Below the pieces are notes generated by a model. That model worked only from the letters and a program-made list of their open reading frames with translations. It was not told the DNA's origin and ran no database searches. DNA of 27,034 bases from positions 1 to 27,034 of the forward strand of contig LQBI01000014.1 in the NCBI GenBank assembly GCA_002030045.1, written 5' to 3'. Position numbers and translations under genes: made by a program. Below are positions 248-25,941 of this stretch, in pieces (positions within the stretch are counted from its first letter, which is position 1; every line of letters starts with the position of its first letter). The stretch is from Candidatus Aegiribacteria sp. MLS_C (lineage in GTDB: Bacteria; Fermentibacterota; Fermentibacteria; Fermentibacterales; JCC-6).

Positions 248-323
<76 letters not shown>

Positions 324-3198: not shown

Positions 3199-3206
3199 GT
3201 CACCCT

Positions 3207-3359
3207 TCACTTAAACAGCTTCCGCAGCCCTTTGCCAGTCACCTTGCCGGCAGCCCTTCGGCCGATCCTTCTGCCTATCCGTCCGCTGGATACCGCCTGC
3301 CAGTCGCCGAGAAACTTAGCGAGGCGATAGAGAAAACCTCTGGATTTGCTGATGCTCAT
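3207..3359 (-). CDS. 50-residue cationic small protein
   Basis: The frame MSISKSRGFLYRLAKFLGD (1-19) continues to residue 50 and ends in GKGLRKLFK-stop. GAGG lies about 8 bases upstream of the ATG. The second half is strongly basic and glycine-rich (GRIGRRIGRRAAGKVTGKG), with no acidic residue after position 19, suggesting nucleic-acid or membrane-surface binding. I recall similar roughly 50-residue proteins beside HU-like genes in deltaproteobacterial islands, but have no named family. It overlaps the alternative GTG of the DUF6933-like gene, so the two are co-translated. It is the first gene of the left cassette, 77 bases after the end of mcrC. Confidence 0.7.
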   Translation of the reverse strand: MSISKSRGFLYRLAKFLGDWQAVSSGRIGRRIGRRAAGKVTGKGLRKLFK

Positions 3360-3372
3360 GATTGCCCTCATA

Positions 3373-3390
3373 GTTCATTAAGTTATGAAC
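3373..3390. promoter_or_regulatory. Inverted repeat upstream of the 50-residue gene (possible operator)
   Basis: GTTCAT (3373-3378) and ATGAAC (3385-3390) form a 6-base inverted repeat around TAAGTT, directly upstream of the ribosome-binding site of the 50-residue gene. It could be a dimeric repressor site or an mRNA hairpin. No strong promoter or T-tract accompanies it, so it is not a convincing terminator for mcrC. The rest of 3360-3436 is AT-rich and otherwise featureless. Confidence 0.35.
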
Positions 3391-3436
3391 CAACAATTTG
3401 CACATTAGCCAATTTTTCCCGATCAAGTTATTCTTT

Positions 3437-4570
3437 TTACCTATTCTCTATTACACCCACCACCGAAAGCAGCTGTTTTCGTATCTCTTTCGCTTCAGAA
3501 CCTAGATCAACGGTCGCGAATCGTATTTCATGTCCCTGGATCACGGCAGTTTCATCAATATCGTTACCGACCGAGGGATGCAAAAGAAGACCTTCAGTAT
3601 TGAGTGAAAGGGGATCCGCGGGATCTTCCTGAGATCTCACATAGGCGTATATCTGATACATGTACCCGCTACGGAGCGATTCCTCCCTGTACCAGCCCGC
3701 AGTAACGATGGAGTTGAATTTTGTGTCTATGACAATCCGTCGGCCGGTACTTATTTGTGTCAATACAATATCGGTTCGCATGGCGGGGAGGATTTTGTCG
3801 ATCCCGGTGGTTTTTCTTTCGACGGGCCACGCTATAACTTTCCCTGCATCAACACGCCAGTCCGGCTTCGGCAAAACGACATCGTAAAATCCCGCCACAG
3901 CCTTTTCGTATAGCTTTCTGATCCATGCAATTTGCCTGTCCGGTACGGAAAGGTAGTTGCGTCCCGCTGCTTCAGTCGGCAATGCCAAGTTAAAAACCAG
4001 ATGTGCAACAGATACCATATGCCTGTCTTCGACGTCACACCGACCAAATCGATCAACAGACAGTTCGGCAAGACTCGGTTTTTCTCCGACAACCCCCATC
4101 CGCCGTAAGCTCGCGGCAAGTGACCTGCATCGGCGAGCAATCTCTCTGCGATTAACGATATTCCCGACTTCATCTAGGGCGGCACGAACAAAGCGGTTTC
4201 GAGGTGTGTCAACTGTCAGCTCCTCAAACCGACATGCAATCCTGCCGCGATCAAGTAACTGCCCGCACTCGGTTTCAAGAATATTAATATGCCCGCGGAC
4301 GCGCGTAAGATGCGCATCTCGGATACGATATCCGCAACTTAAGTTTCTCTTCAAACGACGCTTTACCAACCGTGCGAGAATTTCCGCCACCAGGTCGGGA
4401 ATGTCGTCGGGGAGTTCTTCTAATGCCCTTCTAGCGACACCGGACTGACGCATCAGATCTGAGGCATACAGCATCAACAACCAGAGGTTACGTACCGGGA
4501 TAAGCCCGACGTAACCGGGTATCCCAGATATAGCATGGGACGCGTTAATTGCTGTGTCTGCCACGGTCAC
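3437..4570 (-). CDS. mcrC: McrC, nuclease subunit of a modification-dependent restriction system
   Basis: The 377-residue protein is McrC, which binds the McrB ring and cuts DNA. The N-terminal part (residues 15-200) includes GLIPVRNLWLLMLYASD, typical of the family. The C-terminal PD-(D/E)XK nuclease core is intact: D267 in MRTDIVL, D282 and K284 in VIDTKF, and Q306 in YQIYAYV. These match D244, D257 and K259 of Escherichia coli McrC, so it is predicted to be active. Translation begins at a GTG overlapping the mcrB stop (GTGA), with GAAGGA just upstream, so the two subunits are coupled. Length is normal for the family. It is the last gene of the long defence array. Confidence 0.95.
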   Translation of the reverse strand: MTVADTAINASHAISGIPGYVGLIPVRNLWLLMLYASDLMRQSGVARRALEELPDDIPDLVAEILARLVKRRLKRNLSCGYRIRDAHLTRVRGHINILETECGQLLDRGRIACRFEELTVDTPRNRFVRAALDEVGNIVNRREIARRCRSLAASLRRMGVVGEKPSLAELSVDRFGRCDVEDRHMVSVAHLVFNLALPTEAAGRNYLSVPDRQIAWIRKLYEKAVAGFYDVVLPKPDWRVDAGKVIAWPVERKTTGIDKILPAMRTDIVLTQISTGRRIVIDTKFNSIVTAGWYREESLRSGYMYQIYAYVRSQEDPADPLSLNTEGLLLHPSVGNDIDETAVIQGHEIRFATVDLGSEAKEIRKQLLSVVGVIENR

Positions 4571-6759: not shown

Positions 6760-6783
6760 CTGTCCCTTCTATAGTTGCTCAAA

Positions 6784-7050
6784 TCATAACCATTCGTCGC
6801 CCCTATATCGGTCACGAAGCCTGTATTGTCCATCACCAAGTGTCCGAAAGTATTTTTTGTAGGTGTCACTGTGGCTGTCACTTGCCCCGTTTGCCAACGT
6901 CACAACAACATGGTTTGCTGTCGGTGGCGGATTCCAGCGCTTTCCCCTGATCAAATGCCTCACATCTTCGACAGTAAAAGGCTCCCTAATCGAACCATTA
7001 TTTACTGCCGCAACAACTTCCCTGTTCAATCCACGGCCGTATTTTGCCAT
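6784..7050 (-). CDS. Small hypothetical protein upstream of mcrB (88 aa)
   Basis: No family is named with confidence. The N-terminal helical part (AKYGRGLNREVVAAVNNGSIREPFTVEDV) and the following helix look like a winged-helix or restriction-associated DNA-binding module. The segment VVVTLANGASDSHSDTYKKYF, followed by GDGQYRLRDRY, resembles a beta wing closing such a domain. GAGG lies about 12 bases upstream of the ATG at 7050. It is 17 bases after the GIY-YIG gene and 24 bases before mcrB, so it is clearly part of the same transcript, and could act as a specificity or regulatory subunit for either neighbour. Confidence 0.7.
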   Translation of the reverse strand: MAKYGRGLNREVVAAVNNGSIREPFTVEDVRHLIRGKRWNPPPTANHVVVTLANGASDSHSDTYKKYFRTLGDGQYRLRDRYRGDEWL

Positions 7051-7067
7051 CGTACCAACCTCATAAT

Positions 7068-7958
7068 TTATCCATTAAATTTCTTTTCTTCCGGATAATG
7101 CTGCTCCAGCTCCTTCTGCTCCAGCTCTTTCAGAGACACCCCGGCGCCATTCTTCCATTGCCTCAGACCATTGGCCTGGCCACCCTGCACGACCGACGCT
7201 GCGGCGCTTGGGCTCGAAAATTCGTAGTCCTTAGCAAAAAGAAACTTGTCCTGCTTCCTGATGAGAACACCATCGGCTATCAACTGAGACCGCATCATCG
7301 AGGGATATGGATATTTCTTGACCGAAGGCCGTTCGGTCAGCACGGCTTCAGATCCCCTCGTGACAATGAATCCATTATCCGATAGTTTCCCCGTTGCCCT
7401 TACGTTTTTGATGGTGCAGTGCATCAGATCCGACGTCACTGGTTCGGCTGTTGCTTGAATATGGAGCTTCAAAAAGTCCTGACCAAGTACAGAGAGCAGT
7501 TGTTCGACCTTCGCCAGAAATACATCCATATCGGCTGCCTCGGATTCAGGAAGATGGGATCCGCTCGCGTTGGTATTTTCCAGCTCGCACCGGTCGGCCT
7601 CCTTCGCCATCGCAATGAGCTTTCCTTCGAGGTACTTAATGTGCGCCTTGGTCAGGTTCTCGTCTTTGCTTATAAAAATGATGATGGTCTTCCAGAAGTC
7701 GCGATCAAGGTGGGATTTGATTCTGGAACGTACCGCTTCAGCTTCGCCAATGTATACTCTTTGTCTTCCCGTTTCCGGATTGACTCCGGTCAGGAAATAG
7801 ATTCCGGGCTTTCCGGCCTCCTCACGCTTAAGAACGAGTTCCAGTTGGGAGCGGGGTCCGGCAATGGCTTTACCGGTCCAGTTTGATATCTCGGCGGTCC
7901 GGACTGAGGCGGGATCGCCCTGCGCAAGAAAAATTTTTACAGTGGCGGTTTCTTTCAC
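7068..7958 (-). CDS. GIY-YIG nuclease-family protein with C-terminal DUF4357
   Basis: The 296-residue product carries the GIY-YIG fold at about 50-135: GIY at 52-54, YIG at 69-71 (RVYIGEAEAVRSRIKSHL), arginines R77 and R79, and a candidate metal-binding E111 in KYLEGKL. The C-terminal region, about 235-282 (SSPSAAASVVQGGQANGLRQWKN), matches DUF4357, which is often found in such proteins and in restriction systems. It should be a cytoplasmic DNA endonuclease or nickase. It starts at GTG with GGAGG 7 bases upstream. It lies between the methylase block and the mcrBC block, 71 bases after the DUF6998 gene; that gap shows no clear promoter. Whether it belongs to either block functionally is open. 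Confidence 0.88.
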   Translation of the reverse strand: MKETATVKIFLAQGDPASVRTAEISNWTGKAIAGPRSQLELVLKREEAGKPGIYFLTGVNPETGRQRVYIGEAEAVRSRIKSHLDRDFWKTIIIFISKDENLTKAHIKYLEGKLIAMAKEADRCELENTNASGSHLPESEAADMDVFLAKVEQLLSVLGQDFLKLHIQATAEPVTSDLMHCTIKNVRATGKLSDNGFIVTRGSEAVLTERPSVKKYPYPSMMRSQLIADGVLIRKQDKFLFAKDYEFSSPSAAASVVQGGQANGLRQWKNGAGVSLKELEQKELEQHYPEEKKFNG

Positions 7959-8029
7959 GGTTACGCCTCCTTAATTCAGGGTTGGCCACATCAAGGTCCG
8001 GAACGGAAAACGAGTTTATTCTGCCACCA

Positions 8030-8503
8030 TCATGCTTTTCGCGGCAATCTGTCCAATTCGATCACGGATTCGTTGAGCCGCCGCAGCCTGGAAAGTGAAA
8101 TCTGATATTGCCCGTTGCCGGGCCGTTTTTTGCCCTCGAACTGCTTCCAGACCAGATTACCAGGACCGTTGAAGATCTCCTCGAAGGTTCCGTCTTGCTC
8201 GATCTTTATGACGATTGTATGGGCCGGTTCGCTTCTGAAGGCCACGCGATTTGATTGTGTGGCCTTTATCTCTACCTTGTCACCATGTGCCGAGCAGGCA
8301 TCGAAGCCTCTGTTTGAGGCTTGTTCCAGCGTCAGGCCGTAGGCTTCCGCGACAAGACATTCGCCGATACTGCCGACCAAGTGACCGTCGGGCGTGAAGT
8401 GACGGACCGGATACAGTTCACCAAGCGCTCCGACAATTTTATAGAGCTCTTGTATCAACTGTTCTACGCGGCAAGGATTATTCACGGAGCCTGTCTCTTC
8501 CAT
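8030..8503 (-). CDS. DUF6998-like protein with PD-(D/E)XK-type pattern (157 aa)
   Basis: The ATG at 8503 is chosen because GAGGTGA precedes it and the methylase stop lies 4 bases upstream; a longer frame to 8605 would overlap the methylase by nearly 100 bases. The sequence FTPDGHLVGSIGECLVAEAYGL (split at about residues 36-57), then GFDA (66-69) and VEIKATQ (77-83), matches my recollection of DUF6998. The order E48, D68, E78-x-K80 is the classic spacing of restriction-endonuclease-fold active sites, so it may cut DNA; this is inference. Its tight coupling to the methylase suggests a cognate partner. Confidence 0.78.
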   Translation of the reverse strand: MEETGSVNNPCRVEQLIQELYKIVGALGELYPVRHFTPDGHLVGSIGECLVAEAYGLTLEQASNRGFDACSAHGDKVEIKATQSNRVAFRSEPAHTIVIKIEQDGTFEEIFNGPGNLVWKQFEGKKRPGNGQYQISLSRLRRLNESVIELDRLPRKA

Positions 8504-8507
8504 CAGC

Positions 8508-11500
8508 TCACCTCGGTGGATGGCAGCACCGGGGATCACCCGGTGGCAGGTCGAGTCGGGTTTGATAGGGCTGACCCGTGCGAATCGCTTCCTGCAAGGC
8601 GTCATAGATTTCCAGGATCACCCGCTTGGTTCGGTATTCGCCGTCATGGTCGGCTTCGTCCTTGCGACGGACGATGGGGAAGGTGTCCATAATATAGGCG
8701 ACAGCATCCCTCGGTGTCGGAAAATTCTCCTTCAGCAGGGCAAGCTCATCTGCTGTTTCTCTTTCCGCAGGTTTCCAGTCTCCCCTTTCATCGGACTCCA
8801 GATAAAGATGGAAAAAGGCCGCATCGAGTTCACAGCGCAGAAGAAACCGGCGCGCTTCATCCCAGCGGAAGGGTGGTCCGTCCCAGCCGCAGTCCTTGGC
8901 AAAAGATTCCAAGTCCCAGGCGGTATAGGTGAGTTCGAGGATGCGGGGAAGGAGCCACTCACATTGGTTTTGTAGGCCATCAGACCATGAGCATGGTTTC
9001 TTAAATATCATAGGAAAAGGGAATGGAAGCTGATGCAAAATGAAGAAGGTTAGGTTAATTCCGCCCAGCTTCTGCCTCGTCGCGTAATCGAAGACAAATG
9101 AAGTGAAACACCCCTGGAAAGACACAAGTTGTTTTGCACCCACTGAAGAAGGAAAAAGTACAATAGGCATGCTATGACCCACACCAACTCGCGGGAGAAT
9201 AGTTGAAACCACGGTTCGATGGTTTGTAGGGCTGGTTACATTTGCGAAACCTATGAACCAAACACTTTGATATCCAACTTGTATCGATACCATTACGTCT
9301 CTCAAGCCAACCCAGTAGCGTGGTTGTGGAGAGCATGACGGATCTTGGTGCTGCTTATTCGTCAAGTATTCGGGTTGCCCTTGACGAATCATCGCTGTTT
9401 TGCTGATAATTACTTGAGATGCGCGGTGATCAAAATGATGGATCATTTTCGCCTCATAGAGCGGCAGGTACTCCTCTCCATCCTTGCGGAACAGGTTTAC
9501 TTCCAATTCCCATCCCTCGGCTTCCAGCTGTTCTCGTGTGCGGAACAGGTGCGAGTCGTTGGACATGTCGAACATTCTATTGAATTTAATGCCCCAGGGA
9601 TTCTCTTCAGGGCGGCCGCCATGGGCCTCCCGGATCAAGACAGGCACCCTTCGATAGATGGCCTTGGTGAGCTCCGCATCCTGTCTCGACCTGAAGATAG
9701 GGCAGGTCCGGGTATTGGGGTTAAGCAGCGCAATGTCCCCCGCTGAGAGGGTAAACTTCCGGTCGGGATCCTGCAGCTCCTCCACGGCGTGGGCAAAAAA
9801 CACAAACCAGGCATGTTCAGCGATGGGCTGCAGCCCGCTCCCGGTGGTGAACAGACAAAACTTGTAACTGCTGTGAACGTCAGAAAAGAATATTCCTTTG
9901 TTCTCAAAATCAAACAAGCTCACCAGCGAGCCTTTGTTCACCACGTCCTGGAAGAAAAACTTGGTGGTGTCGTCCGTGGCGATGCCCGTGGGCAGAACAC
10001 AGCCGGCGCGGCCCGTCTCGTTGACGAGGCTGCGCATCAACTCAGCAAAGACGGTATAGAGATTGATGTCGCCCCGCCCACACAGAGGATAGCGTCCACT
10101 GTTGCGAAGTAGATGGCTTTCGCCTTCAGCCTGTCGCAGATCATCAAGGAATGCGTTATGCAGATCGGCGTCATTTTTTTTCAAGGCATCAATCATTCGC
10201 TTTCGGGCGGCGGCGTTGGGCGCTCCGGCGATTTCGGGGCTTCGCTCGGCAAACCATTCCTTTTCCTGGAGCTTCACCCGCTCCCAGGGCGGATTCCCAA
10301 GAACACAGTCAAACCCTCCCCTGGCAAAGACTTCGGGAAAGGCCAAATGCCAGTGAAAGAAGCGATAGCGTTCAGACAGGAGACGAACATCCGTGGCAAG
10401 TCCTTCCGGAAGCTCGCCGTCCGATGCCAGGACACTGAGATGTTCCTGCGTGATTCCGATGACACTTCGATCCCTTCCCGGTTCGGCGAAGTATTTTCGT
10501 ATGATAAACGCAGAGCACCATGTGTCAGCGAGGAGCTTCTTGTTCCTGAACTCATCGGTCTGCTCATGATGGCGGAAGGCCCTTTCCTTTGCCCGTATGT
10601 CTTCCGGTCGATCATCGGGCAGTTCTTCCAACCTTGATGCCGCCTCGTACAGACGCGCCTGGTTTTCCCCATCCTCCAAGGCAAAAAGGGATCCGATACC
10701 CTTTCGCGCCCCGCTGTTGCGTTTCTTCAGGATCGTGCAGGCCGCTTTATCATCTCCCTCGATGGGTTTGAAGGCATTGTCAGGCAACCCTCCCGCGATC
10801 AGCTCTGGCGTGGCGCCGAGCAGGCTGTTGCCCACCCTGATATGGTGGTCCAGGAAGGAAAGGGGTTTCCCCGGTTCCAGGGCTTCCAGCCACAGGTTCA
10901 CCCGGCACAGTTCCGCCGACATGGGATTGACATCGACGCCGTAGAGGCATCGCCCGATCACATCCCGAAGAGCCTGCTGATAGAGAACCGGTGACGGTTC
11001 ACTCTCCCCCTGGCTTATGGCCCGCACCCGGGCCAGATGTCGTGCAAGCCGATGGGCGGCACCAACAAGAAAATGTCCCGACCCGACGGCAGGGTCACAA
11101 ACCTTGAGGTTCAGGAGCGCCTGCTCGGCGTCAACAGGGGGCATTCTCCGAATCGCCTTTTCAACAACCGGTTCGAGGGCGGAATCAAGAAGGCACTGAA
11201 CCAGGGAATCGGGCGTGTAGTATGACCCTGAGGTTTTTCGCTCATGCCCGGCTAATTCGGCATAGCTGAATCTGGCTCCGTCGCCGGTTATCTGCGGAGT
11301 GAGGGCCAACAGGCCCTCATAGACGCCACCCAGTTCCTCGGCGCCAAGGTTCCGGTAATCCACCGGCCTGAGCACCTTCCCCTGACGGACAAAGCAGAGG
11401 TGTCGAAGCACTTCGAGGAAGTCGTAATTTGTGAGATCCCTGTCGTTCACCGCATCCGTCGATGCGGGATCCCAGAGGAAACTGCCCAGTGCCGGTAGCA

Positions 11501-12635: not shown

Positions 12636-12637
12636 AA

Positions 12638-15469: not shown

Positions 15470-18400
15470 GTTCGAGGTGCTCCAAAAACGTCAGGATGAC
15501 GACGGAAAATGGCATCCCAGTCATCCCTGTGGTGAAAGCGAATAACAATGTAGCCCATCTCAAGCAAGGACTGGTTGATAGTCTCGTCCTTGCGCATCTG
15601 GTCCGGCTCGTCATGGGGCGGACCGTCTATATAGACGGCAGCGGTGTACTCACGGTAGTAAAAATCAGGGCGGGTGTGACAGGCCTCGATCAAATACTGA
15701 GCATCGCTGGGCGGTCGAAGCATCAGGGCATCCACACGATCGAGCCACCGTTTCTCAAGGGTGCTGTCGCAACGCCTCCTCAACGCGGCCATGCGCTCTT
15801 CACGGGTTCCGGCGCCTCCGGCGGGCCTGCAGGTAGAACGAGACAATTCACCAAGAAAGGCCCGGATCAGGTATCGATCGAGGTTCGGGTGGTCAACCTG
15901 GTTGCCGTAGTCAAGCAGGCACTCATAACAGGCCTTGCCGCAGCGATCAGGGGCCTGGTCTTCAAGTGTCTCGGGATCGAAGTGGCACAAACGTAACGCT
16001 TCCCTGGCGAGCAAGGGCAGGATATCGGGCTCTTCGACTATTTGACGAAGCACTCCCGCACCACCCTCGGATGACTCATAGAAAAGAATTTCCCGCCGGT
16101 CCTGTGAGGTCGGCATGGGCTCGCATGAAAGCTCCCGCGGTTCCAACTGAAAATGCTTCTGTATGGCCTGCTTGAAGGCAGCCTGCAAGCTTGCCATCTC
16201 CTTATCGGACCGCTTCGGCTCAAAGCGCATCACAAGAGCGTTCTTGGTATCCTTGACGTAGGGGACGACTCGCTGCGTTCTCCCCTGTACAGAGGCATCA
16301 TCGCTGTCCTGTTCGTCGGCCTGGTTACGCCACCAGTAGCCCCGCTCGAGATCGAGCATGAAGCCTGCGGGGCCTTTCTGCTGACGTTTCCAGCCCAGGT
16401 TGACCCGGTAAAGATCAGTGGCATCCCCGTAGCTCAGACGACCAATCAAAGTCTCGTCGCAATAGACCTCGGCGTCCTTGCGATCCAGCATCTCCCCGAT
16501 CTCAGGAAATCGGTAGGCTGTCGCAAACTTGTAACCGAACCGCTGGCGTTCCTCCTCATCACAGGTAATTCGTTCGGTAAGCTTCAGGCTTACGTTCTGA
16601 AGGTGAACCAGGTTTTCAATGCGTGAGGGACCTTCGAGGGCCGCTCCGCAACGATCACAGATGTCAACCAGCGCTCTCCCGGATTCAAGATGGGCGTAGC
16701 CGCAGGCAGAACAGCGCTTCATAGTAACGGTGGAAAGATCGTGACTTGCTTCGATATCATCGGAACCGAAATCGATATTTACCTTGTAGACCCGATAACG
16801 TGCTCCCTCGTGATAAACAAGGGCCCGGGGACCGAACTCGGAGATCGCCAGGAAGCGCGGCCTGGAAATAAACTCGTCACTTCCCCGCCTCGCTCGCCGT
16901 CCCGGAACGTAGGCTGACAATGGAAGGCGCGGAAAATTATAGCCCGGGAGAAATCCTTCAGCAGCAAAGTATCGATAGGAATAGAAATCTCCTTCATAAA
17001 TACCTTCTGCTTCGGTCAGTAACCGTATCTGGCTTTCCGCCTGGGCACGGAGCCGACGAGAGTGCGTACGTTCATATTCGGGACGGGCGTGATCGCCAAT
17101 GATCCGGTGATGCAGCTCGCGTTGACGCACGGCGGAACGGTAGAGGCTTCGCCAGCGCTCGCAGGCCCTGTCGAATTGCCGTTCTATCTGGCTCAGGACA
17201 TCATTGGTCCATCCGTCATGAAACCAGGCCGTCGTGGCAATCTCATCACGAATGCTTTCCATAAGAATATTTGCCTTTGTCAGAGTGGCTGCGCGGTGTG
17301 CAGGATCTCTTAACTGCTGGAACAAAACATCCTTCACAGGCAGGGGAAGTGTTCCATCCACACTGGTAAGGTCAAGAACCGTGGGAAGCGTTTTGCCGAG
17401 ATCCGGCTTTGCAACCTCCATCCATAGGGCATGGATGTGCGAGCGTATGAGGTCACGGTTGCGAATGTCGATCCGCGGTGGCGCAACAACTCCGGCAACC
17501 ATTTTGGTGGGCTCGCGGTAATAGTACTGGTCGTGGGGACTTCGGCCCGCACAATAGGTGAAAACCAGCGCTGGTTGTCCGCCTCGCCCGGCGCGACCGC
17601 TTCGCTGCGCGTAGTTGGCGGGCGTCGGGGGAACATTCCGCAGATTGACTAGGTTCAGCTGGGAAATGTCCACCCCCAGCTCCATGGTCGGGGAACAAAA
17701 AAGCAGAGGCAGCAGACCTTCACGAAACCGATCCTCACGTTCCTCACGATCGCCCGAGGCAACCTGGGCCGTGTGCTCACGGGCCTCGAGCACGCATTTT
17801 AAATTAACAAAACTTCGATAGCACTCAACGAAGTAGCGGTTAACCTCCGGCGGGATTTCTCCGACACTGAGAAGTCTGGTTCTGTCTACGGGTCTGACCT
17901 CTCCATATGCAGGAAGCCAGCGGAGGGCACCCGCATTGATCTGATATCCCGGGTCATCATTGTTGTTGCCGCTGCGGACCTGTTCAACAATTCCGTAGCG
18001 CTTCAATGCCAGGAGGAGAAAGCGGATGGTTTCATCAATCTCCGTACGTCCCAGATTCTCCCCCTCATCTATATGAGGTGCCAGCGATCTCTTGAGATAC
18101 TGTCCAAACCGGCCATAGGAAGAGACAAACAATCCGGATCGGTCCTGACGCCTTCTGGACCGTGGAAATGTAACCTCGGATTTCTCTAGACTGCGTGACT
18201 CCTCGAGATACCAGACAGTACCTTCCCTGAGCCTCGGTTTTGTCTGATCTACGAGATCAAGCTGTCTCTGGGGATCAAGAACGTCCACCTTTATCGACAG
18301 TGATCGACGCATGTGATCCAGCAAGGTGCGCAGTATTTCTTCCCGTGTTTCTCGGGGGGCATTCCTGAGTGGACCCGGGGTCTCAAGAAAAAAATCGTCG

Positions 18401-20727
18401 CTTCTGCCACGACGAACGGCAAAGCCTCTGGTCCATATCTCCGCTTCCTCAAACAGGCTGTCGACACCGGTCAGGCCCTCGTAATCGAAGGTGAGAAGAC
18501 CACAGTCTTCCAAATTGGGTGCTGTAACCCGCCATCCGCGGAGCAGATCACGATAGAGATAGTACTCAATAATCCTGCGCAGGGCGTCGTTGGTCGTATT
18601 TCTGGCAGGTCCCCGTATTGTCGGGTCCGCAGCGTATTCCTCAAAATCGAGGCCCATCGCTTCAAATACACTTCGTGACAACTCTCCATGGCCGAGCCCG
18701 CCGGGACCTTTTCCCTGAGTCGCCTTGTGAAGCGCCGATCGAAGGAGGGCCACTTGGGCAAAATCGTTGAAGTGTCCTGCCTGAAGAGACGCGTCCTGTC
18801 GATTGTCAGTGAAGCTAAGAAGTTTACGGGCCTGACGGTCTAGGTCGCGGTCCGTCTGAAGTTCTATGAGTGAACGCACCGCCAGAATCGTTGTGGCCGT
18901 GCTGCGGTTGTCCACTCCCAGTGTCGCCAGCTTTGTTCGCTCAGAACGCTGGGTTCTAGTGTAGGCAATACCGCAGGAGGGATCCAGGCAAAACAGAAAA
19001 TTATTGGTAATAAGCGTGGCGGGAATCCCATCGCCTTCAGAGACAATCCGCCCTCCGGGGCTTATAAAAACAGATTCGGGCAAATCTTTGCGACAGGACG
19101 GTATGACCCGTTCTACGCCGTTTGTGGTAACCTCCTTCAGAAATTCCGGAAGACGATCAAGAAGTTCCTCGTTTACTCCCCGCGGCCAGGGATGTTCCTC
19201 TGAATAGTAAACATAGGCATCTTCATATGTATCATCATCGTCTTCCTTGCGATCCTCGCGAGGCAGCAAAAACTTGCCATGCTCATCCTGACCGACCTTA
19301 ACCCGGTAGTAGGCGGTCCCGCACTGGCGACAGAACACCATGGGATAGAGCGGCTTGTCCGGGTCACCTGGCTTGGATACCTTTTTTGAAATTTCGAGGT
19401 GTCGCACCTCGTTGGGTTCAATGGTTGCCCACACCGTGTCGCCGCGAGTAAAAAACTGATGGAGACGAAAGGCAAAAATCGGAAAGCGACTGGACTCACT
19501 TCGCCGCAACTCCGAACCTTTCATAAGGAATTGGCGCAATACCCGTGAGCATCTTTCGGGGTCAGCACCCGTCATGCTCTCCAGTTCCTCCACAGCGCCG
19601 GCTTCACCATCCAGCTGCCGTGGCAACTGTCTTATCAGACGGCCGGTTTCAGGTTCGGAACATATCCCGAAGGTTGTTTCCACCCAGGAGGCCAGGGGAT
19701 TGCTCCTGAACTCCTCATATGAGTCAGGAGGCGGGTCTGATGATTCAAGAATCGATCGGATTGCTTCAATGGTGGCCTTATCGGTATAATCAAGCTCGGG
19801 TGTCGCCCGCTCCAAGGTTTCCCCGATAATCTGTTCGGGAGTAAAAGGAACTCCAAAAAGGGTTTCTGCAACCTTGGCAACCTCGGCCTTCTGTTCCTCA
19901 ACGGTACCCCCGCTTGTCATGGTGGCAGATGTACCAATACAGATCGTGTCTCTGTCACCAAAGGCCTGACGACACCGACGGATCAACAAGGCCACGTCCG
20001 CCCCCTGGCGCCCACGATAGGTGTGGAGTTCATCAAATACAAGAAACCTGAGATCCTTGGCCGCTCTCACCAACTCGCGGTCCTCTGTACGAGTGAGCAT
20101 GAGCTCGAGCATCATATAGTTTGTCAGCAGTATATCGGGCGGGTTGGCCCGAATCTCCTCACGATCAGGACCTTTTTCCTGGCCAGTATAACGGGCGAAA
20201 CGAACTGGCGACTTGCCGTCGCTATATCCCTTCATGATAAACTTGATAAGCTCTTCGTTTTGACTGTTGGCCAAGGCGTTCATGGGATAGACAACAATGG
20301 CCTGTACTCCCCGGCCCGAACCCCGACGCAGGACATGATCGACTATCGGCACAATATAGGTAAGACTTTTTCCTGAACCAGTCCCGCTCGTCAGGACAAA
20401 GGATTGGTTCTGCTTCGCCTTTAAGATAGCCTCTTTCTGGTGGGCGTGAAGCTGGAGAAGCTTGCCGGTATGATCTGTATCGGATTTGTCGATACGGAAT
20501 ATTTTTGAGCATTCAGAATGAAGGATGCCCTCTCTAACCAGTTCGTCTATAGTTCCACCAGGGAAATAAGTGGGATTGAGCTGCAGAAGAGGATCAGGCC
20601 AGAATGCCCCTGCTTCAAGTGCGGATTCAACAACTTCATTGATGTGCTGATCCGCGATTTTAATAAAGCTCCGGGTGTAGCTGGCATAGTCGGAAACGAG
20701 CCGTCGGCGAAGATCAAATACATCCAT
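15466..20727 (-). CDS. DEAD/DUF1998 helicase fused to a nuclease-like domain (1753 aa), DruE/DrmAB-like
   Basis: Domain order: helicase lobe 1 with GTGSGKS (115-121), DELH (232-235) and TSATM (266-270); helicase lobe 2 with SPTMELGVDIS and QRSGRAGRGGQP (about 1015-1052); paired cysteines CSACG and CDRCG (about 1335-1365), probably zinc-binding; DUF1998 with ESSEGGAGVL and CGKACYECLLDY (about 1545-1605); and a C-terminal module (about 1640-1745) containing RPDF (1686-1689), YIDGPPHD (1699-1706) and LLEMGYIVIRFH, which resembles DUF559/Vsr-type nucleases. DruE of Druantia and the DISARM pair DrmA/DrmB supply the same helicase and DUF1998 functions. GGAGGT lies 6 bases before the ATG, and a 99-base gap separates it from the Hsp70-like gene, so a promoter may lie there. 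It should unwind and perhaps cut invading DNA; cutting is inference. Confidence 0.9.
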   Translation of the reverse strand: MDVFDLRRRLVSDYASYTRSFIKIADQHINEVVESALEAGAFWPDPLLQLNPTYFPGGTIDELVREGILHSECSKIFRIDKSDTDHTGKLLQLHAHQKEAILKAKQNQSFVLTSGTGSGKSLTYIVPIVDHVLRRGSGRGVQAIVVYPMNALANSQNEELIKFIMKGYSDGKSPVRFARYTGQEKGPDREEIRANPPDILLTNYMMLELMLTRTEDRELVRAAKDLRFLVFDELHTYRGRQGADVALLIRRCRQAFGDRDTICIGTSATMTSGGTVEEQKAEVAKVAETLFGVPFTPEQIIGETLERATPELDYTDKATIEAIRSILESSDPPPDSYEEFRSNPLASWVETTFGICSEPETGRLIRQLPRQLDGEAGAVEELESMTGADPERCSRVLRQFLMKGSELRRSESSRFPIFAFRLHQFFTRGDTVWATIEPNEVRHLEISKKVSKPGDPDKPLYPMVFCRQCGTAYYRVKVGQDEHGKFLLPREDRKEDDDDTYEDAYVYYSEEHPWPRGVNEELLDRLPEFLKEVTTNGVERVIPSCRKDLPESVFISPGGRIVSEGDGIPATLITNNFLFCLDPSCGIAYTRTQRSERTKLATLGVDNRSTATTILAVRSLIELQTDRDLDRQARKLLSFTDNRQDASLQAGHFNDFAQVALLRSALHKATQGKGPGGLGHGELSRSVFEAMGLDFEEYAADPTIRGPARNTTNDALRRIIEYYLYRDLLRGWRVTAPNLEDCGLLTFDYEGLTGVDSLFEEAEIWTRGFAVRRGRSDDFFLETPGPLRNAPRETREEILRTLLDHMRRSLSIKVDVLDPQRQLDLVDQTKPRLREGTVWYLEESRSLEKSEVTFPRSRRRQDRSGLFVSSYGRFGQYLKRSLAPHIDEGENLGRTEIDETIRFLLLALKRYGIVEQVRSGNNNDDPGYQINAGALRWLPAYGEVRPVDRTRLLSVGEIPPEVNRYFVECYRSFVNLKCVLEAREHTAQVASGDREEREDRFREGLLPLLFCSPTMELGVDISQLNLVNLRNVPPTPANYAQRSGRAGRGGQPALVFTYCAGRSPHDQYYYREPTKMVAGVVAPPRIDIRNRDLIRSHIHALWMEVAKPDLGKTLPTVLDLTSVDGTLPLPVKDVLFQQLRDPAHRAATLTKANILMESIRDEIATTAWFHDGWTNDVLSQIERQFDRACERWRSLYRSAVRQRELHHRIIGDHARPEYERTHSRRLRAQAESQIRLLTEAEGIYEGDFYSYRYFAAEGFLPGYNFPRLPLSAYVPGRRARRGSDEFISRPRFLAISEFGPRALVYHEGARYRVYKVNIDFGSDDIEASHDLSTVTMKRCSACGYAHLESGRALVDICDRCGAALEGPSRIENLVHLQNVSLKLTERITCDEEERQRFGYKFATAYRFPEIGEMLDRKDAEVYCDETLIGRLSYGDATDLYRVNLGWKRQQKGPAGFMLDLERGYWWRNQADEQDSDDASVQGRTQRVVPYVKDTKNALVMRFEPKRSDKEMASLQAAFKQAIQKHFQLEPRELSCEPMPTSQDRREILFYESSEGGAGVLRQIVEEPDILPLLAREALRLCHFDPETLEDQAPDRCGKACYECLLDYGNQVDHPNLDRYLIRAFLGELSRSTCRPAGGAGTREERMAALRRRCDSTLEKRWLDRVDALMLRPPSDAQYLIEACHTRPDFYYREYTAAVYIDGPPHDEPDQMRKDETINQSLLEMGYIVIRFHHRDDWDAIFRRHPDVFGAPRT

Positions 20728-20826
20728 GCGTTACCTCCGGATCCGGATTTCTAATTTTACAACGTACTGTTACACGCGTCGTCTACTTTTGAGCACGAAA
20801 AAGAAGAGTCCTCAACTTTTCAGTGT

Positions 20827-22215
20827 TCATATTTGCTCTGGACCGATATACCTTTCTTCCCAATCTTGATGAGGAGGCTGTTCGACTGCCATTATACGAC
20901 TTGCCGGAGTAACTTCTCCTATATCAAACTCTCGATGGCTCAACCCCCAAGCAACGACAAGGCGATAATAGTCATCAGTCTGGCTGAGCAGTGATTCCGG
21001 GACGGTAACTTGCATGAGGATAGTTCCTTCATTGATATCAAATTCTCTTAACCATCCGTCAAGCTTCTCAACTGTGGAACTAAAGAATGGCAACTGGCTT
21101 CCACCGCCAATTAAGAGTATTGGCAACCTACCCGTTCGCCACACCGATGAGTTCGGATCTCTTTGCTTGGCATCGCGGATTATTAGCTTCATCATTTTCA
21201 TACATTCAGCTTTAAGCTCGTCCTCAGCTGCCCTGATTTCATTAATCATCTCTTCGCGGCGAAGAATATATGGTTCAATGTCATCTGTAATTGGCATCAG
21301 AGGATCGTGCGAATCTCTCAAATCTTGAGATCTCCTTTCGTGGTAGTGCTGAATTGAGGCGATCCGTTCATGATGAAGACGTATTGTGCCCAACAGTTTT
21401 ACGTCCGTCACTAACAGGCTATAGCGGTCGCCACCGTCTGCTTGATGTAGTATAAAACTGCACATATCTACAGTAGACGCTCCAATGTCAATCATGAGAT
21501 GGAGCCCTACCCGGCGAAGGTCTGAAAGGGCATATCCAACAGCTCCTGCTACAATTTCAGGTATAATCGCAAAATCACAACTCAGCTCATCATCAGTTTC
21601 CCAATAGTCGGAATCATCAACCATGCGTAACTCATTGATTGCCCTCTCCAAAGTAATTCTATTCTCTTGAAGTGTGGATAGCATCCATGCCGCTTTTCCC
21701 ACACGGATGAAACGATGATTGTCTTCGTTATCCTCACTGCATGGAGAAGGAACTCCCAAGTTCAGGCTCCATATTAGTCTTCCAAAGTGTCTCAGAACGT
21801 CTTGTCTTGTTTCAAGAAACCACTTTCGTGAATAGCGAAGAACGAGCGCAAGGTAGATTGCCGCTAATCCTTCCGGCGAGAAACCTTGTTCTTGCGGACC
21901 TCGATTGCTCCTTATGTGGTCGTTATCGGAAAAAAGTTCAAGTTTGATATCATTGATCATATTTTTAGCTCCATTGCCACGCCCGAGATTAAACAAATTA
22001 TTCGGCTGACGATGCAGTCTCGTCGGTAGTATGAAAGGCATCGAGGTGTGTGCCAAATTGCAGAAATTCACTGCATAACCGGGGGATCCCGGAAGGTCTG
22101 GTATTTGTATGACCACTTTGGATGCTGATGTTCCGAAGTCAAAGCCTATCACGAGCTCACACTCGCCCTCGTTACCAGCATATACATACTGTAAACAGTG
22201 TTCATCTATCGGCAT
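20827..22215 (-). CDS. Hsp70/actin-fold ATPase (462 aa)
   Basis: All nucleotide-binding motifs of the Hsp70/actin/sugar-kinase superfamily are visible: phosphate-1 IGFDFGTSASKV (23-34), connect-1-like IIPEIVAGAVGYA (218-230), phosphate-2 MIDIGASTVDM (241-251) and adenosine LLIGGGSQLPFF (367-378). The substrate-binding domain of true DnaK is absent; instead a charged helical insertion with EEMINEIRAAEDELKAE lies around 320-340. It is therefore not a housekeeping chaperone but an ATP switch, probably acting with the SNF2 helicase 14 bases upstream in the same operon. AGGGGG precedes the ATG. Both genes are AT-rich compared with the helicase-methylase block. The specific function is unknown. Confidence 0.85.
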   Translation of the reverse strand: MPIDEHCLQYVYAGNEGECELVIGFDFGTSASKVVIQIPDLPGSPGYAVNFCNLAHTSMPFILPTRLHRQPNNLFNLGRGNGAKNMINDIKLELFSDNDHIRSNRGPQEQGFSPEGLAAIYLALVLRYSRKWFLETRQDVLRHFGRLIWSLNLGVPSPCSEDNEDNHRFIRVGKAAWMLSTLQENRITLERAINELRMVDDSDYWETDDELSCDFAIIPEIVAGAVGYALSDLRRVGLHLMIDIGASTVDMCSFILHQADGGDRYSLLVTDVKLLGTIRLHHERIASIQHYHERRSQDLRDSHDPLMPITDDIEPYILRREEMINEIRAAEDELKAECMKMMKLIIRDAKQRDPNSSVWRTGRLPILLIGGGSQLPFFSSTVEKLDGWLREFDINEGTILMQVTVPESLLSQTDDYYRLVVAWGLSHREFDIGEVTPASRIMAVEQPPHQDWEERYIGPEQI

Positions 22216-22229
22216 ACCTACCCCCTACG

Positions 22230-25200
22230 TCAAATCAGCTGAATAATTGCAATTGCTATCTCCCTCGAATCTGATTTATATGAACGGCTGCGTTCAATCC
22301 TAAGGCGTTGCTGTCCAACTCGTTTTTCCAGCGCACGAATGCGCCCCTCAGTTGCCTTCACAAGTGCCGTACGTCCATGGAAAGAATGTTTTTGCTTTAC
22401 TTCTTCTAATCTACTTTTCTGTAATGTAAGGTGCTGTTCCAATGATTGGAGCTGAATATCAGCCCTGTCTTCGTTTTTGGCTATCAACTCATTCATGTAG
22501 TTTTGATAGTCATCATCCAAGTTCGCAAGAAGAACATCGTTTGCAATTTGATAAACGCACTCAATATCAACAACATTTCGTGCCTCAAGCCAATCCTTTC
22601 CTTTAGTAACTGCTATGTTCACAAGTTTTTCGGCCTGATCAGAATCCAAAAAACCATCGTCGTGGTCGAGCGATCTCGCTGCATAGGATAGTTTCTCCGT
22701 ATCCTGTAACCCGTGAAACGCCCAGAGAGATATAGCAATTATATAAATACCGTGGTTTACGTGAACATCCATGTCCGCGTTATTCAGCTTTATCGCAACA
22801 GCCGGGGTGAGTTGTTCTTCTTTATCTGCTATTCTGCTGCTTATCATTCTTACAATGGGGTGGAACTGCGAAATCAGCTCTTCGTATGGACTGGCTGTAA
22901 CCGCATCGCGGCTCTCAAATTTAAAGCGATAATCCAGAGAGTTCGCCCTAGTTAATCTAGTAACGAACGGCAACCGATTATTTCTTATAAAATCGGCTAA
23001 ATCGAGCTTTGCTTGATCGGATAAGTCAATTTGAAAAAAAGGTTTACCCTGCTCTATCTGGCGTAATTCAGAACCGGGATAATTAAGGCGAAGGTAATCA
23101 AATACATATCTCTGAATATCCTCCCCACTGATCCATCGGTTCATTTCACGTGCCGCGTGTATTTGGTTCAAAATGTAGTCACCATAAGCGATAAGATTTG
23201 AAGCGCCTTGCTCTAATTGTTGCTCCTCAAGCCGAAGGTTTTCAAGAGCCTGTGATGTCTGATCGATTCGTTTCTCCTGTTGTTCTGAAGTTAGATTGCC
23301 TGATAGAAGATCGATCTCAAGCTTGCGGACGGTTTCTCCCAGAATTGCTTCGAAATCCCCTAGAGCATTCCTGCATAAATCAAGTTTTTCATAAAGACGT
23401 TCATAAATCCTAGAATCGATAGTGTTCTTGTAAAAAATATTCCAGATTGTTACCTTATCAGCCTCTTGGCCCAAACGATCGATTCGTCCAATTCTTTGTT
23501 CCAAGCGCATGGGATTCCATGGAAGATCATAGTTAATGAGGACCCTCGAAAACTGAAGATCAACGCCTTCACCACCAACTTCGGATGAAAGCAGAACTCT
23601 GGCGCCTGCTTGGTCGCGAAATCGCTTGATCGTTTCATTTTTGGTTTCCCGTTGTCCCCCTTTAAGCACTAGACATGAAATACCATCAGCCTCCAGCCTT
23701 TCAGCAAGGTAACCAAGTGTGGAGTGGAAAGTTGAAAATACAACTACCTTCTCCTGCGGATGCTTATTCAAAAAAACAGACAAGATGTCACGCAATTTAG
23801 AGTATTTTGTGTCAACCTGAATAAGATGATCAAGTTCTACGTAGTCTCGGGAACGGCGAACAATCTCTGTCACGAGGGGTCCCATGGTCATTCGCCGCTG
23901 CTCATCTTCTTCATCTAACCCAGTCTGCTCCATCTCCTCCAGCTCGATCAATTTTTTCTGCCACGCGCGAAGTGACGCGGCCATGCTACTTGTCATCTGA
24001 CGCTGTGGCTGAATAACGAGGAATCGTTCATTGATCTGTCTTTGAAGGGCATACTTGACAACGACTTCTGTAACAAGATCATAAAACCTTTCTTCAACCT
24101 GCTCGAGTTCGACAAATTCAGGTATCGGCTCACGTAGCACACACCATTCCTGCACGTCCCTTTTACGTGTCCGAGTTACTACATGAGCAAGAAGATTCAC
24201 TGTTTCAAGACGGTAGGCAAGTCGGCTTCTGGCATCTCGTCGGTTGAATCGTTCTTGCGACAACCCTTCCTGCTCAATCATAGAAAGCTGACGGTTTGCG
24301 CGGAGCAGTGGATGGCTTTGAGCTTGGAGTAACAGTTCACGAAATTTATTAACATCCGGTTGTGCGCTGAGAACAAGATCTCTTGCCTTCACCAGTGGCG
24401 CATTGGCTTCTAAAATCTGCGAGAGAACATCTCGTCTCGTAAAGGTGTCAGGATCCAAAAGTTGGAGGAGAGAAAATAGATCATCATTACGATTGTGTAT
24501 TGGAGTTGCTGTAAGAAAGATTGTATATTCCGCCACATTTTTACACAGAAGGCCCAGTTCGTTAGTCTGTGTTTCAAGATTTCTTAAGTGATGGGCCTCG
24601 TCAATCACCAATAGATCAACAAGTCTACTATCACTCTCTTTTGACCTAAGAAAACGCGCAAGCTTAGCACCTGTGCTGTCTGCTTCCTTTTCTTCCCACC
24701 AGCGAGGAGGGCGAAGACCTTGTGTACTTGCAATTACTGCAAAGCCCCTAGAATGTGCATCTTCGCTTCTCAAAATCGCTAATGTTTCGCGTGCATCGCA
24801 AATTTTTGCCTCGACCCCCATTTTTTCCGATAACTCAGACTTCCACTTCTCCCGGAGCGCTGCCGGGCATAGAACCAAAAGACGGCGCATATCAAAGCGG
24901 CTACGAAGTTCTGTCCAGATGAGACCCGCCTCAATGGTCTTGCCAAGCCCTACCTCGTCAGCGATCAGGATACCATTCGACGGTGATTCAAGAATTTTCA
25001 CTACAGACTTGAATTGGTAGGCATAAAAATCGGTGTTTGTGGCCTCCATACTATATATTACATCAGCCAGACGTCCCGACAATTTCATGTGCGTAAGAGT
25101 ACGTCGAAGATCAGATGGTCTTCCCAGTTTTCTCTGCTCTAGCATGTCTAATGGCGACATCCTGACAGACTGGATTCTTTCGAGTTGATCTTCAGGAATC

Positions 25201-25313
25201 CAGCGAATGCCGTCGTTAAATTCCACCTGCAAGAGTCGGCGATTTCTGCGCTTCTGCTCTCTACCAGTTAAAATTCCCGTTCGCACAGGATCGTTAATTA
25301 GCCTTACGCGCAT
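22230..25313 (-). CDS. RapA-like SNF2-family helicase (1027 aa)
   Basis: Residues 1-60 form a small beta-rich N-terminal domain (VRLINDPVRTGILTG...WIPEDQLERI), as in RapA-type helicases. The motor has DEVGLGKT (119-126), DEAH (238-241), TATPIHN (268-274) and lobe 2 with SSEVGGEGVDLQ and NPMRLEQRIGRIDRLGQ (about 580-620). The C-terminal 400 residues are helical, with coiled-coil-like stretches near 660-690 and 945-1005. It is predicted to translocate on double-stranded DNA or strip bound proteins. The start has AGGG 6 bases upstream. It is the first gene of the defence array, downstream of a terminator that isolates it from the next gene, and shares an operon and low GC content with the Hsp70-like ATPase. 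Confidence 0.93.
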   Translation of the reverse strand: MRVRLINDPVRTGILTGREQKRRNRRLLQVEFNDGIRWIPEDQLERIQSVRMSPLDMLEQRKLGRPSDLRRTLTHMKLSGRLADVIYSMEATNTDFYAYQFKSVVKILESPSNGILIADEVGLGKTIEAGLIWTELRSRFDMRRLLVLCPAALREKWKSELSEKMGVEAKICDARETLAILRSEDAHSRGFAVIASTQGLRPPRWWEEKEADSTGAKLARFLRSKESDSRLVDLLVIDEAHHLRNLETQTNELGLLCKNVAEYTIFLTATPIHNRNDDLFSLLQLLDPDTFTRRDVLSQILEANAPLVKARDLVLSAQPDVNKFRELLLQAQSHPLLRANRQLSMIEQEGLSQERFNRRDARSRLAYRLETVNLLAHVVTRTRKRDVQEWCVLREPIPEFVELEQVEERFYDLVTEVVVKYALQRQINERFLVIQPQRQMTSSMAASLRAWQKKLIELEEMEQTGLDEEDEQRRMTMGPLVTEIVRRSRDYVELDHLIQVDTKYSKLRDILSVFLNKHPQEKVVVFSTFHSTLGYLAERLEADGISCLVLKGGQRETKNETIKRFRDQAGARVLLSSEVGGEGVDLQFSRVLINYDLPWNPMRLEQRIGRIDRLGQEADKVTIWNIFYKNTIDSRIYERLYEKLDLCRNALGDFEAILGETVRKLEIDLLSGNLTSEQQEKRIDQTSQALENLRLEEQQLEQGASNLIAYGDYILNQIHAAREMNRWISGEDIQRYVFDYLRLNYPGSELRQIEQGKPFFQIDLSDQAKLDLADFIRNNRLPFVTRLTRANSLDYRFKFESRDAVTASPYEELISQFHPIVRMISSRIADKEEQLTPAVAIKLNNADMDVHVNHGIYIIAISLWAFHGLQDTEKLSYAARSLDHDDGFLDSDQAEKLVNIAVTKGKDWLEARNVVDIECVYQIANDVLLANLDDDYQNYMNELIAKNEDRADIQLQSLEQHLTLQKSRLEEVKQKHSFHGRTALVKATEGRIRALEKRVGQQRLRIERSRSYKSDSREIAIAIIQLI

Positions 25314-25428
25314 ACCGAACCCTGCTTTCTCTTGAATGGTGATAATTTCAAGGGAGCAATGTTCAATTCACATCCCCGGAAGTAATACCTTACTAATCTG
25401 CCAAAGAAAAGGCCTGCTGTTACTTGAT

Positions 25429-25444
25429 TTGGCAATGTTGCCAA
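25429..25444. promoter_or_regulatory. Palindrome upstream of the SNF2/Hsp70 operon (possible operator)
   Basis: TTGGCAA, two bases, TTGCCAA is a perfect inverted repeat about 115 bases upstream of the SNF2 start. A further half-site, CTGCCAAA on the plus strand, lies at 25399-25406. The spacing suits a dimeric repressor. No clear sigma-70 promoter could be fixed between it and the gene; a TATTAC at 25386-25381 on the complement is a possible -10 without a good -35. The rest of 25314-25473 shows nothing else. Confidence 0.4.
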
Positions 25445-25473
25445 CCTGATTCTTTTTTCTAATCCACAATACA

Positions 25474-25506: not shown

Positions 25507-25533
25507 GATATCGATTCCAGCATGAAGCCCTCA

Positions 25534-25770: not shown

Positions 25771-25821
25771 TTTTAATGCATGGCCAATTCATTCCATAGA
25801 AAAGACAATGACGCATATAGA

Positions 25822-25833
25822 ATATGATCATAT
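25822..25833. promoter_or_regulatory. Perfect palindrome in the divergent recombinase control region
   Basis: ATATGATCATAT is a 12-base perfect palindrome, 31 bases upstream of the recombinase -35 box and between two divergent genes. It may be an operator or part of a recombination site bound by the recombinase. The surrounding DNA (25771-25941) is strongly AT-rich. Confidence 0.35.
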
Positions 25834-25863
25834 AATGTTCTCATTGATACATACAGAAATGGA

Positions 25864-25892
25864 TTGACTTATTGTTATTCCTTGCATACATT
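25864..25892 (+). promoter_or_regulatory. Promoter of the serine recombinase gene
   Basis: TTGACT (25864-25869) is separated by 17 bases from TACATT (25887-25892), with AT-rich flanks. It lies about 50 bases before the recombinase ATG at 25942. Confidence 0.55.
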
Positions 25893-25941
25893 ATATACAC
25901 GTTTTTATGGTTTTCACTATAATCGGTGCGAGGAGGCAGTC

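What the first reader, a model, noticed from the sequence alone, without database searches (positions are those of the whole stretch)
3437..25313. About 22 kb of contiguous minus-strand defence genes combining a helicase-methylase system, an SNF2/Hsp70 pair and McrBC
Ten genes run in one direction, most with overlaps or gaps under 30 bases; only the 71-base and 99-base gaps are larger. Families seen: two SNF2 helicases, an Hsp70-like ATPase, a DEAD/DUF1998 helicase, an Eco57I-type methylase, a DUF6998 protein, a GIY-YIG/DUF4357 protein, an 88-residue unknown, McrB and McrC. DISARM has DrmD, DrmMI, DrmA, DrmB and DrmC; here no phospholipase-D gene exists and helicase and DUF1998 are fused as in DruE. 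BREX PglZ/BrxC are absent. The set may be a variant of a described helicase-methylase-ATPase type or a new composite in which modification-based and modification-dependent restriction work together.
Basis: partly seen in the sequence, partly recalled or inferred. Interest (0 to 1): 0.75.

Follow-up and report, generated by a model that had tools for sequence, protein, structure and literature searches.

The report
ARMADA-McrBC defence locus plus SNF2/Hsp70 pair
The 22-kb run of genes is a mosaic of already described bacterial anti-virus systems (ARMADA type I with McrBC) joined to a separate two-gene unit, a RapA-like DNA motor with an Hsp70-like ATPase, that travels as a fixed pair across many phyla and for which I found no description in the papers I could search.

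Summary
In detail: ten intact minus-strand genes at 3437-25313, with gaps of -4 to 99 bases. It is not one new system but three blocks. (1) The core, YprA/DUF1998 helicase, BrxHII-like SNF2 helicase and PglX-like methylase, is ARMADA type I (Bell et al. 2025): same order, and the YprA falls inside a tree clade of three-gene loci that excludes ARMADA II and Druantia III. (2) Downstream McrBC is a published partner of this cassette; the GIY-YIG/DUF4357 and DUF6998 genes are optional extras. (3) The upstream SNF2/Hsp70 pair is an independent module. In 62 of 62 genome loci found with the Hsp70-like protein, the SNF2 gene (one shortened) lies beside it on the same strand; the two co-evolve (r=0.93); nearly all lack ARMADA. 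The SNF2 model matches RapA along most of its length; the Hsp70 model matches the DnaK nucleotide-binding domain and is too short for a substrate-binding domain. GC content (45%, 54-58%, 49-53%; genome 59.5%) follows the block borders. The pair meets ARMADA I on one strand in four loci, in both orders, so this is repeated, not obligate, association. The core is ordinary; the pair, apparently undescribed, is the interesting part.

The parts
22230..25313 (-). SNF2a: RapA-like Swi2/Snf2 ATPase, 1027 aa, first gene of the run; member 1 of the SNF2/Hsp70 pair
   Evidence: PADLOC model PDLC02623 over the full length, 871 bits; NCBIfam DISARM DrmD 406.8 bits, below its cut-off of 610; AlphaFold2 pLDDT 81; best match E. 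coli RapA, Z 24.5, 774 residues aligned, rmsd 11.4
20827..22215 (-). Hsp70-like ATPase, 462 aa, too short for a substrate-binding domain; member 2 of the pair
   Evidence: no hit in Pfam, NCBIfam or PADLOC; invariant G24 D26 F27 G28 T29 K33 E220 D243 G245 G370-372 in 54 homologues; AlphaFold2 pLDDT 91.2; DnaK nucleotide-binding domain Z about 25; profile against PDB DnaK E=5.5e-6
15466..20727 (-). YprA/MZB(DUF1998) helicase, 1753 aa, probable Vsr/DUF559-type nuclease at the C-terminus (ARMADA type I YprA)
   Evidence: DEAD, Helicase_C, MZB; DUF559 E=0.002, below cut-off; tree; full-length tblastn relatives at 35-43% identity
12638..15469 (-). SNF2b: BrxHII/RapA-like helicase of ARMADA type I, 943 aa
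   Evidence: PADLOC PDLC02853 (labelled DpdE) over the full length, 808 bits; 40-49% identity to ten plasmid orthologues, most of them beside YprA and methylase
8508..12635 (-). PglX-like/Eco57I-type adenine methyltransferase of ARMADA type I, 1375 aa, NPPW motif intact
   Evidence: orthologue within 9 kb of SNF2b in 63 of 65 surveyed loci
8030..8503 (-). DUF6998 protein, 157 aa, PD-(D/E)xK-like motif E..FDA..EIK; putative accessory nuclease
   Evidence: Pfam DUF6998 E=2.4e-54; PADLOC mREase_II E=2e-7; motif conserved in a homologue
7068..7958 (-). GIY-YIG plus DUF4357 protein, 296 aa (PADLOC candidate PDC-S14); accessory nuclease
   Evidence: PDC-S14 E=4e-103; DUF4357 E=2e-20; homologue lies between hsdS and hsdR in a type I RM operon on an Acinetobacter plasmid
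6784..7050 (-). 88-aa ORF, possible DUF7669 domain
   Evidence: weak DUF7669 E=0.0099; no plasmid homologue
4567..6759 (-). McrB-like AAA+ GTPase with canonical NxxD motif (NIAD), 730 aa
3437..4570 (-). McrC nuclease subunit, D-x-DTK motif intact (DIVLTQISTGRRIVIDTK), 377 aa
   Evidence: NCBIfam McrC equivalog 403 bits, above cut-off 338
25771..25941 (.). divergent intergenic region, likely promoter region of the run
   Evidence: promoter-like site GTGAAA-16-TATAAT, 25917 to 25890 on the minus strand; consensus match only

Best explanation
The locus is a composite anti-phage island of three blocks read in one direction. Block 1 (ARMADA type I: YprA helicase-nuclease, BrxHII/RapA-like SNF2 motor, PglX-like adenine methylase) most likely marks host DNA by N6-adenine methylation and attacks unmarked incoming DNA by motor-driven translocation and cleavage through the C-terminal Vsr-type nuclease of YprA. 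Block 2 (McrBC with a GIY-YIG/DUF4357 and a DUF6998 protein) adds cleavage of DNA carrying foreign base modification, so phages that evade block 1 by modification meet McrBC. Block 3 is a separate, widespread two-gene module, a RapA-like dsDNA translocase and an ATPase resembling the nucleotide-binding domain of DnaK. I propose that it defends without cutting DNA itself: the RapA-like motor strips or stalls transcription or replication complexes on invading DNA, and the Hsp70-like ATPase works as its nucleotide-dependent sensor or switch. Shown: identity, order, folds, constant pairing and co-evolution of block 3, and modular independence. Inferred: all biochemical activities, the phage target and the cooperation between blocks.
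For: Core: same gene order and membership in Nocardioides, D. radiodurans, Chlorohelix, Roseomonas, Acidithiobacillus and others; methylase orthologue within 9 kb of SNF2b in 63 of 65 surveyed loci, YprA found in 52; YprA tree places the window inside the three-gene clade, with ARMADA II and DruE3 outside at 100/99-100 support; published definition matches. McrBC: downstream of the cassette in L005, L006, L008, G663 and reported in PMC11090510. Pair: SNF2 next to the Hsp70-like gene on the same strand in 61 of 62 genome-contig loci and 5 of 5 plasmids; in the 62nd (L071) the neighbour is a SNF2 remnant; median gap 12.5 bases; mirror-tree r=0.93 over 63 pairs against a permutation maximum of 0.13. 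Folds. Three GC blocks. Some pair loci lie in defence islands.
Against: No functional test exists for this locus or for the pair. The pair lies directly beside ARMADA I on one strand in three other loci (G299 upstream, G050/L029 and L030 downstream), so it may be an ARMADA accessory more often than 'independent' suggests. The neighbour enrichment in PADLOC families (161 against 42 families) is crude and the control contained a CRISPR locus. The Vsr-type nuclease call rests on a sub-threshold DUF559 match and a motif. A nuclease in the SNF2 C-terminus is not excluded: a RapA-like domain is described as a degenerate REase-like fold in PMC12839542.
Confidence: 0.72

Rival explanations
1. All ten genes form one integrated ARMADA variant in which the SNF2/Hsp70 pair is a dedicated extra sensor arm of ARMADA.
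For: One direction, short gaps and no promoter-like site in the 99-base gap. The pair also abuts ARMADA I in G299 (pair, then SNF2b-methylase-YprA), G050/L029 and L030. Three of 14 pair-bearing genomes tested also have ARMADA I, against about 5% of surveyed genomes.
Against: Nearly all pair loci lack ARMADA and about 95% of ARMADA I loci lack the pair. GC steps at the block border, 45% to 54%. The same genome has a second ARMADA I copy without the pair or McrBC.
Confidence: 0.2
2. A DISARM variant: SNF2a is DrmD and the methylase is DrmMI, with DrmA and DrmB fused and the PLD gene lost.
For: PADLOC gives DrmD and DrmMI labels.
Against: No DrmC/PLD gene; SNF2a scores 407 against NCBIfam's DrmD cut-off of 610; all 42 SNF2a relatives scanned match one PADLOC model labelled DrmD while their constant partner is the Hsp70-like gene; the YprA is fused and in the ARMADA clade.
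Confidence: 0.04
3. The SNF2/Hsp70 pair is not a defence system but a mobile-element or stress/transcription-recycling unit related to housekeeping RapA and DnaK.
For: Folds are those of RapA and DnaK; some neighbourhoods are ordinary (Peptidase_M1, LptF neighbours).
Against: Patchy distribution, 4 of 246 Acidobacteriota and 4 of 396 Pseudomonadota genomes; closest relatives come from different phyla; frequent restriction-type neighbours; plasmid copies.
Confidence: 0.2

Closest known systems
ARMADA type I (Bell et al. 2025, PMC12458937)
   Same: YprA-family helicase with probable C-terminal Vsr-type nuclease, then BrxHII/RapA-like SNF2 helicase, then PglX-like methylase, in that order
   Different: additional upstream SNF2/Hsp70 pair and downstream DUF6998, GIY-YIG/DUF4357 and 88-aa genes
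McrBC joined to a DISARM-like cassette (PMC11090510, Fig. 2 'green')
   Same: canonical NxxD McrB and nuclease-competent McrC after the YprA-SNF2-PglX cassette
   Different: small accessory genes between methylase and McrB
DISARM class 1 (DrmD, DrmMI, DrmA, DrmB, DrmC)
   Same: SNF2 helicase, adenine methylase, YprA-type helicase and DUF1998
   Different: no PLD/DrmC; helicase and DUF1998 fused; SNF2a below the DrmD cut-off
RapA (E. coli RNA-polymerase-recycling Swi2/Snf2 ATPase)
   Same: SNF2a matches RapA from residue 53 to its end
   Different: patchy, paired with an Hsp70-like ATPase; N-terminal part not covered by the alignment
DnaK/Hsp70 nucleotide-binding domain
   Same: fold and phosphate- and adenosine-binding motifs
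   Different: too short for a substrate-binding domain (462 aa); constant partner is a SNF2 gene
CoCoNuT type III CnuD Hsp70-like proteins (PMC11090510)
   Same: Hsp70-like ATPase near McrBC in a defence locus
   Different: McrB here has NxxD, not NxD; the Hsp70-like gene pairs with SNF2, not with McrC

Membership tests
ARMADA type I | YprA homologue of the ARMADA I clade | tested here: met
   26-row ML tree: window within the clade of YprA-SNF2-methylase loci; ARMADA II and DruE3 outside; the published tree itself was not available
ARMADA type I | gene order YprA, BrxHII-like helicase, PglX-like methylase | tested here: met
   window 20727 down to 8508
ARMADA type I | Vsr-type nuclease at the C-terminus of YprA | tested here: inconclusive
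   DUF559 E=0.002, below the curated cut-off; PD..VYIDG..H..R.D motif in the sequence
ARMADA type I | BrxA-like insertion after RecA1, zinc modules inserted in RecA2 | not tested
   protein exceeds the 1200-aa folding limit; only four CxxC motifs counted
ARMADA type I | no GajB-like ArmD, which marks type II | tested here: met
   no UvrD/GajB-like gene in the run
Canonical McrBC | NxxD GTPase motif in McrB; PD-(D/E)xK in McrC | tested here: met
   NIAD at 605; D267..DTK; McrC equivalog cut-off passed
DISARM | DrmC phospholipase-D protein and separate DrmA and DrmB | tested here: not met
   no PLD hit; helicase and DUF1998 fused
DISARM | DrmD at NCBIfam equivalog cut-off (610) | tested here: not met
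   SNF2a 406.8, SNF2b 302.7
Druantia | DruE of a Druantia clade with DruH or other Dru genes | tested here: not met
   outside DruE3 in the tree; no DruH in the window; types I and II not in the tree
BREX | PglZ and BrxC | tested here: not met
   no such hits among the listed families
CoCoNuT type III | NxD McrB-like GTPase | tested here: not met
   NIAD is NxxD
Hsp70 chaperone | Hsp70 nucleotide-binding-domain fold and motifs | tested here: met
Hsp70 chaperone | substrate-binding domain | tested here: not met
   DnaK match covers residues 19-441 of 462, leaving no room for one

The most novel reading that the evidence does not exclude
The RapA-like SNF2 plus Hsp70-NBD-like ATPase pair is a distinct, undescribed two-gene anti-phage system found in bacteria and at least one archaeal bin, which acts by remodelling phage transcription or replication complexes rather than by cutting DNA, and which repeatedly joins ARMADA I to form larger composite operons.
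Probability: 0.4. Interest if true: 0.72.

Novelty: new variant of a known kind. Interest (0 to 1): 0.5.

Why it matters
It resolves a confusing 22-kb locus into known and unknown parts. It shows that a PADLOC model labelled 'DrmD' matches a SNF2 family whose constant partner is an Hsp70-like ATPase, so DISARM calls built on that model may be wrong. It also gives a compact two-gene candidate that can be cloned and tested. If the pair defends, it would link an RNA-polymerase-remodelling fold and a chaperone ATPase fold to phage immunity.

Tried and rejected
(1) Single new composite system: rejected as the main reading after the linkage surveys. (2) DISARM, Druantia, BREX and CoCoNuT membership: see Membership tests. 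(3) PADLOC's Hma (helicase-methylase-ATPase): HmaA matches SNF2b and SNF2a only as one of many SNF2 profiles (192 and 168 bits against 808 and 871 for the best models). (4) PADLOC PDC-M61B matches 26 of 54 Hsp70-like relatives weakly (best 5.8e-11) and not the window's protein; no held paper mentions PDC-M61, so I could not tell whether that candidate is this pair. (5) Literature on a SNF2/Hsp70 defence pair: none found; the library lacks most subscription papers and most preprints. (6) A third conserved gene next to the pair: none universal. (7) Attachment-site repeats at the window ends: none convincing. (8) Viral contigs: three loci with ARMADA I-type SNF2b, none with the pair.

Full report
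OBSERVATION. The ten minus-strand genes are present at the stated coordinates with gaps from -4 to 99 bases. The window is a complete contig of a 2.98-Mb assembly, so both flanks are cut.

CORE BLOCK. YprA (15466-20727), SNF2b (12638-15469) and methylase (8508-12635) match the published definition of ARMADA type I: YprA first, then a BrxHII-like helicase, then a PglX-like methylase, with a Vsr-type nuclease at the end of YprA (PMC12458937). Plasmid relatives have the same cassette. In 65 SNF2b loci gathered from plasmids, viral contigs and Myxococcota, Acidobacteriota, Pseudomonadota, Cyanobacteriota and the window's own phylum, a methylase orthologue lies within 9 kb in 63 and YprA was found in 52; some of the loci without YprA are cut by contig ends, and the order is reversed mainly in cyanobacteria and some Acidobacteriota. 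A 26-row tree puts the window's YprA inside this clade, with E. coli ARMADA II and Druantia III proteins outside. The Vsr-type nuclease itself is supported only by a sub-threshold DUF559 match and a motif.

McrBC AND SMALL GENES. McrB and McrC are canonical (NxxD, nuclease motif). Their association with this cassette was reported before (PMC11090510; PMC12458937) and is seen here in Nocardioides, D. radiodurans, Chlorohelix and G663; 6 of 65 loci is a lower bound, because my McrB profile came from four sequences. The GIY-YIG/DUF4357 gene recurs in one other ARMADA I locus (G805) and close to type I RM genes on plasmids. DUF6998 was not seen in any other ARMADA I locus.

SNF2/HSP70 PAIR. This is the least expected part. 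A scan of the 84,980-genome collection with an alignment of five Hsp70-like proteins returned 62 loci. In 61 the SNF2a orthologue is the same-strand neighbour (a short ORF was called between them in a few); in the last (Spirulina, L071) the neighbour is a 478-aa ORF that keeps N- and C-terminal pieces of the SNF2 but lacks most of the helicase core. All five plasmid hits are paired too (the fifth, H5, was not fetched but has the same hit coordinates in the query as its sister plasmid H4). The order is SNF2 then Hsp70 in 58 of 66 measured loci and reversed in 8, cyanobacterial where checked. Pairwise distances of the two proteins correlate at r=0.93 over 63 pairs, against a permutation maximum of 0.13, although the window's closest relatives are an unclassified bacterium, an Acidobacteria bin, a Myxococcales bin and a Nealsonbacteria bin: the two genes move together.

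STRUCTURES. The Hsp70-like protein folds confidently (pLDDT 91) and matches the DnaK/Hsp70 nucleotide-binding domain at Z about 25 over some 300-328 residues. With 462 residues it leaves no room for a substrate-binding domain. SNF2a (pLDDT 81) matches E. coli RapA from residue 53 to its end (Z 24.5, 774 residues, rmsd 11.4), so I see no extra nuclease domain; BREX authors describe a RapA domain as a degenerate REase-like fold.

INDEPENDENCE AND REPEATED JOINING. The pair occurs in about 1% of sampled genomes (4 of 246 Acidobacteriota, 4 of 396 Pseudomonadota, centres excluded) and ARMADA I in about 5% (51 of 1027, including two centres that carry it). Among the 642 non-centre genomes of those two phyla one has both (G299); independence would give about 0.3, so genome-level co-occurrence is not significant there. 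Yet in G299 the pair lies about 225 bases upstream of an ARMADA I core, and in G050/L029 and L030 it lies downstream of one. Of 14 pair-bearing genomes tested, three have ARMADA I, one of them linked. I read this as modules that meet in defence islands, with functional coupling possible but unproven. GC content supports assembly from parts: pair 45%, core 54-58%, DUF6998-to-McrC block 49-53%, genome genes 59.5%. A second ARMADA I copy in the same genome (contig C4) lacks the pair and McrBC.

IS THE PAIR A DEFENCE SYSTEM? Support is contextual: patchy distribution, plasmid copies, and neighbours such as McrBC, Hachiman, type I-D CRISPR, GmrSD, DrmA and restriction enzymes. The comparison with random genes (161 against 42 PADLOC families) points the same way but is crude. 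PADLOC labels all 42 scanned SNF2a relatives 'DrmD' through one model and holds a candidate, PDC-M61B, that weakly matches half of the Hsp70-like proteins. I found no paper describing the pair, but the library is incomplete.

MECHANISM. For the core: adenine methylation of self, motor-driven attack on unmarked DNA (for ARMADA II all four genes were shown to be needed; inferred here). For McrBC: cleavage of modified DNA. For the pair: a RapA-like translocase switched by an Hsp70-type ATPase, remodelling phage transcription or replication complexes. The last step is inference from folds.

VERDICT. An ordinary ARMADA I-McrBC core with optional extras, joined to an apparently undescribed, constantly paired SNF2/Hsp70 module that deserves testing on its own.

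Noticed in passing
G000 contig C4, about 61-74 kb (L093, L100, L101): A second ARMADA type I copy in the same genome, about 49% identical in SNF2b and methylase, without the SNF2/Hsp70 pair or McrBC.
   Followed up: partly
window 248-323 and 25942-26568: tRNA-Thr(CGT) at one end and a divergent serine resolvase (208 aa from the ATG at 25942) at the other; possible mobile-island borders, but no attachment-site repeats were found.
   Followed up: partly
window 25304-25534 and 25534-25770: Two overlapping small ORFs (76 and 78 aa) just upstream of SNF2a, with no Pfam match.
   Followed up: no
window 623-3210: Staphylococcal-nuclease-like protein, HU protein and DUF6933 protein downstream of McrC.
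   Followed up: no
window 22230-25313 (PADLOC model PDLC02623): This PADLOC model labelled DrmD matched all 42 Hsp70-paired SNF2 proteins scanned; it may produce false DISARM hits.
   Followed up: partly
L071 (Spirulina) 3362-4798: SNF2 partner lacking most of its helicase core but keeping N- and C-terminal pieces beside an intact Hsp70-like gene; deletion or a helicase-free variant.
   Followed up: no
G043, G454, G060, G080, G033, G032 ARMADA I loci: Recurrent unknown proteins of about 610-690 aa between YprA and SNF2b or after the methylase (four in tandem in G032); a possible family of embedded accessory genes.
   Followed up: no
L062 (Methanosarcinaceae bin): An archaeal bin carries the SNF2/Hsp70 pair.
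   Followed up: no
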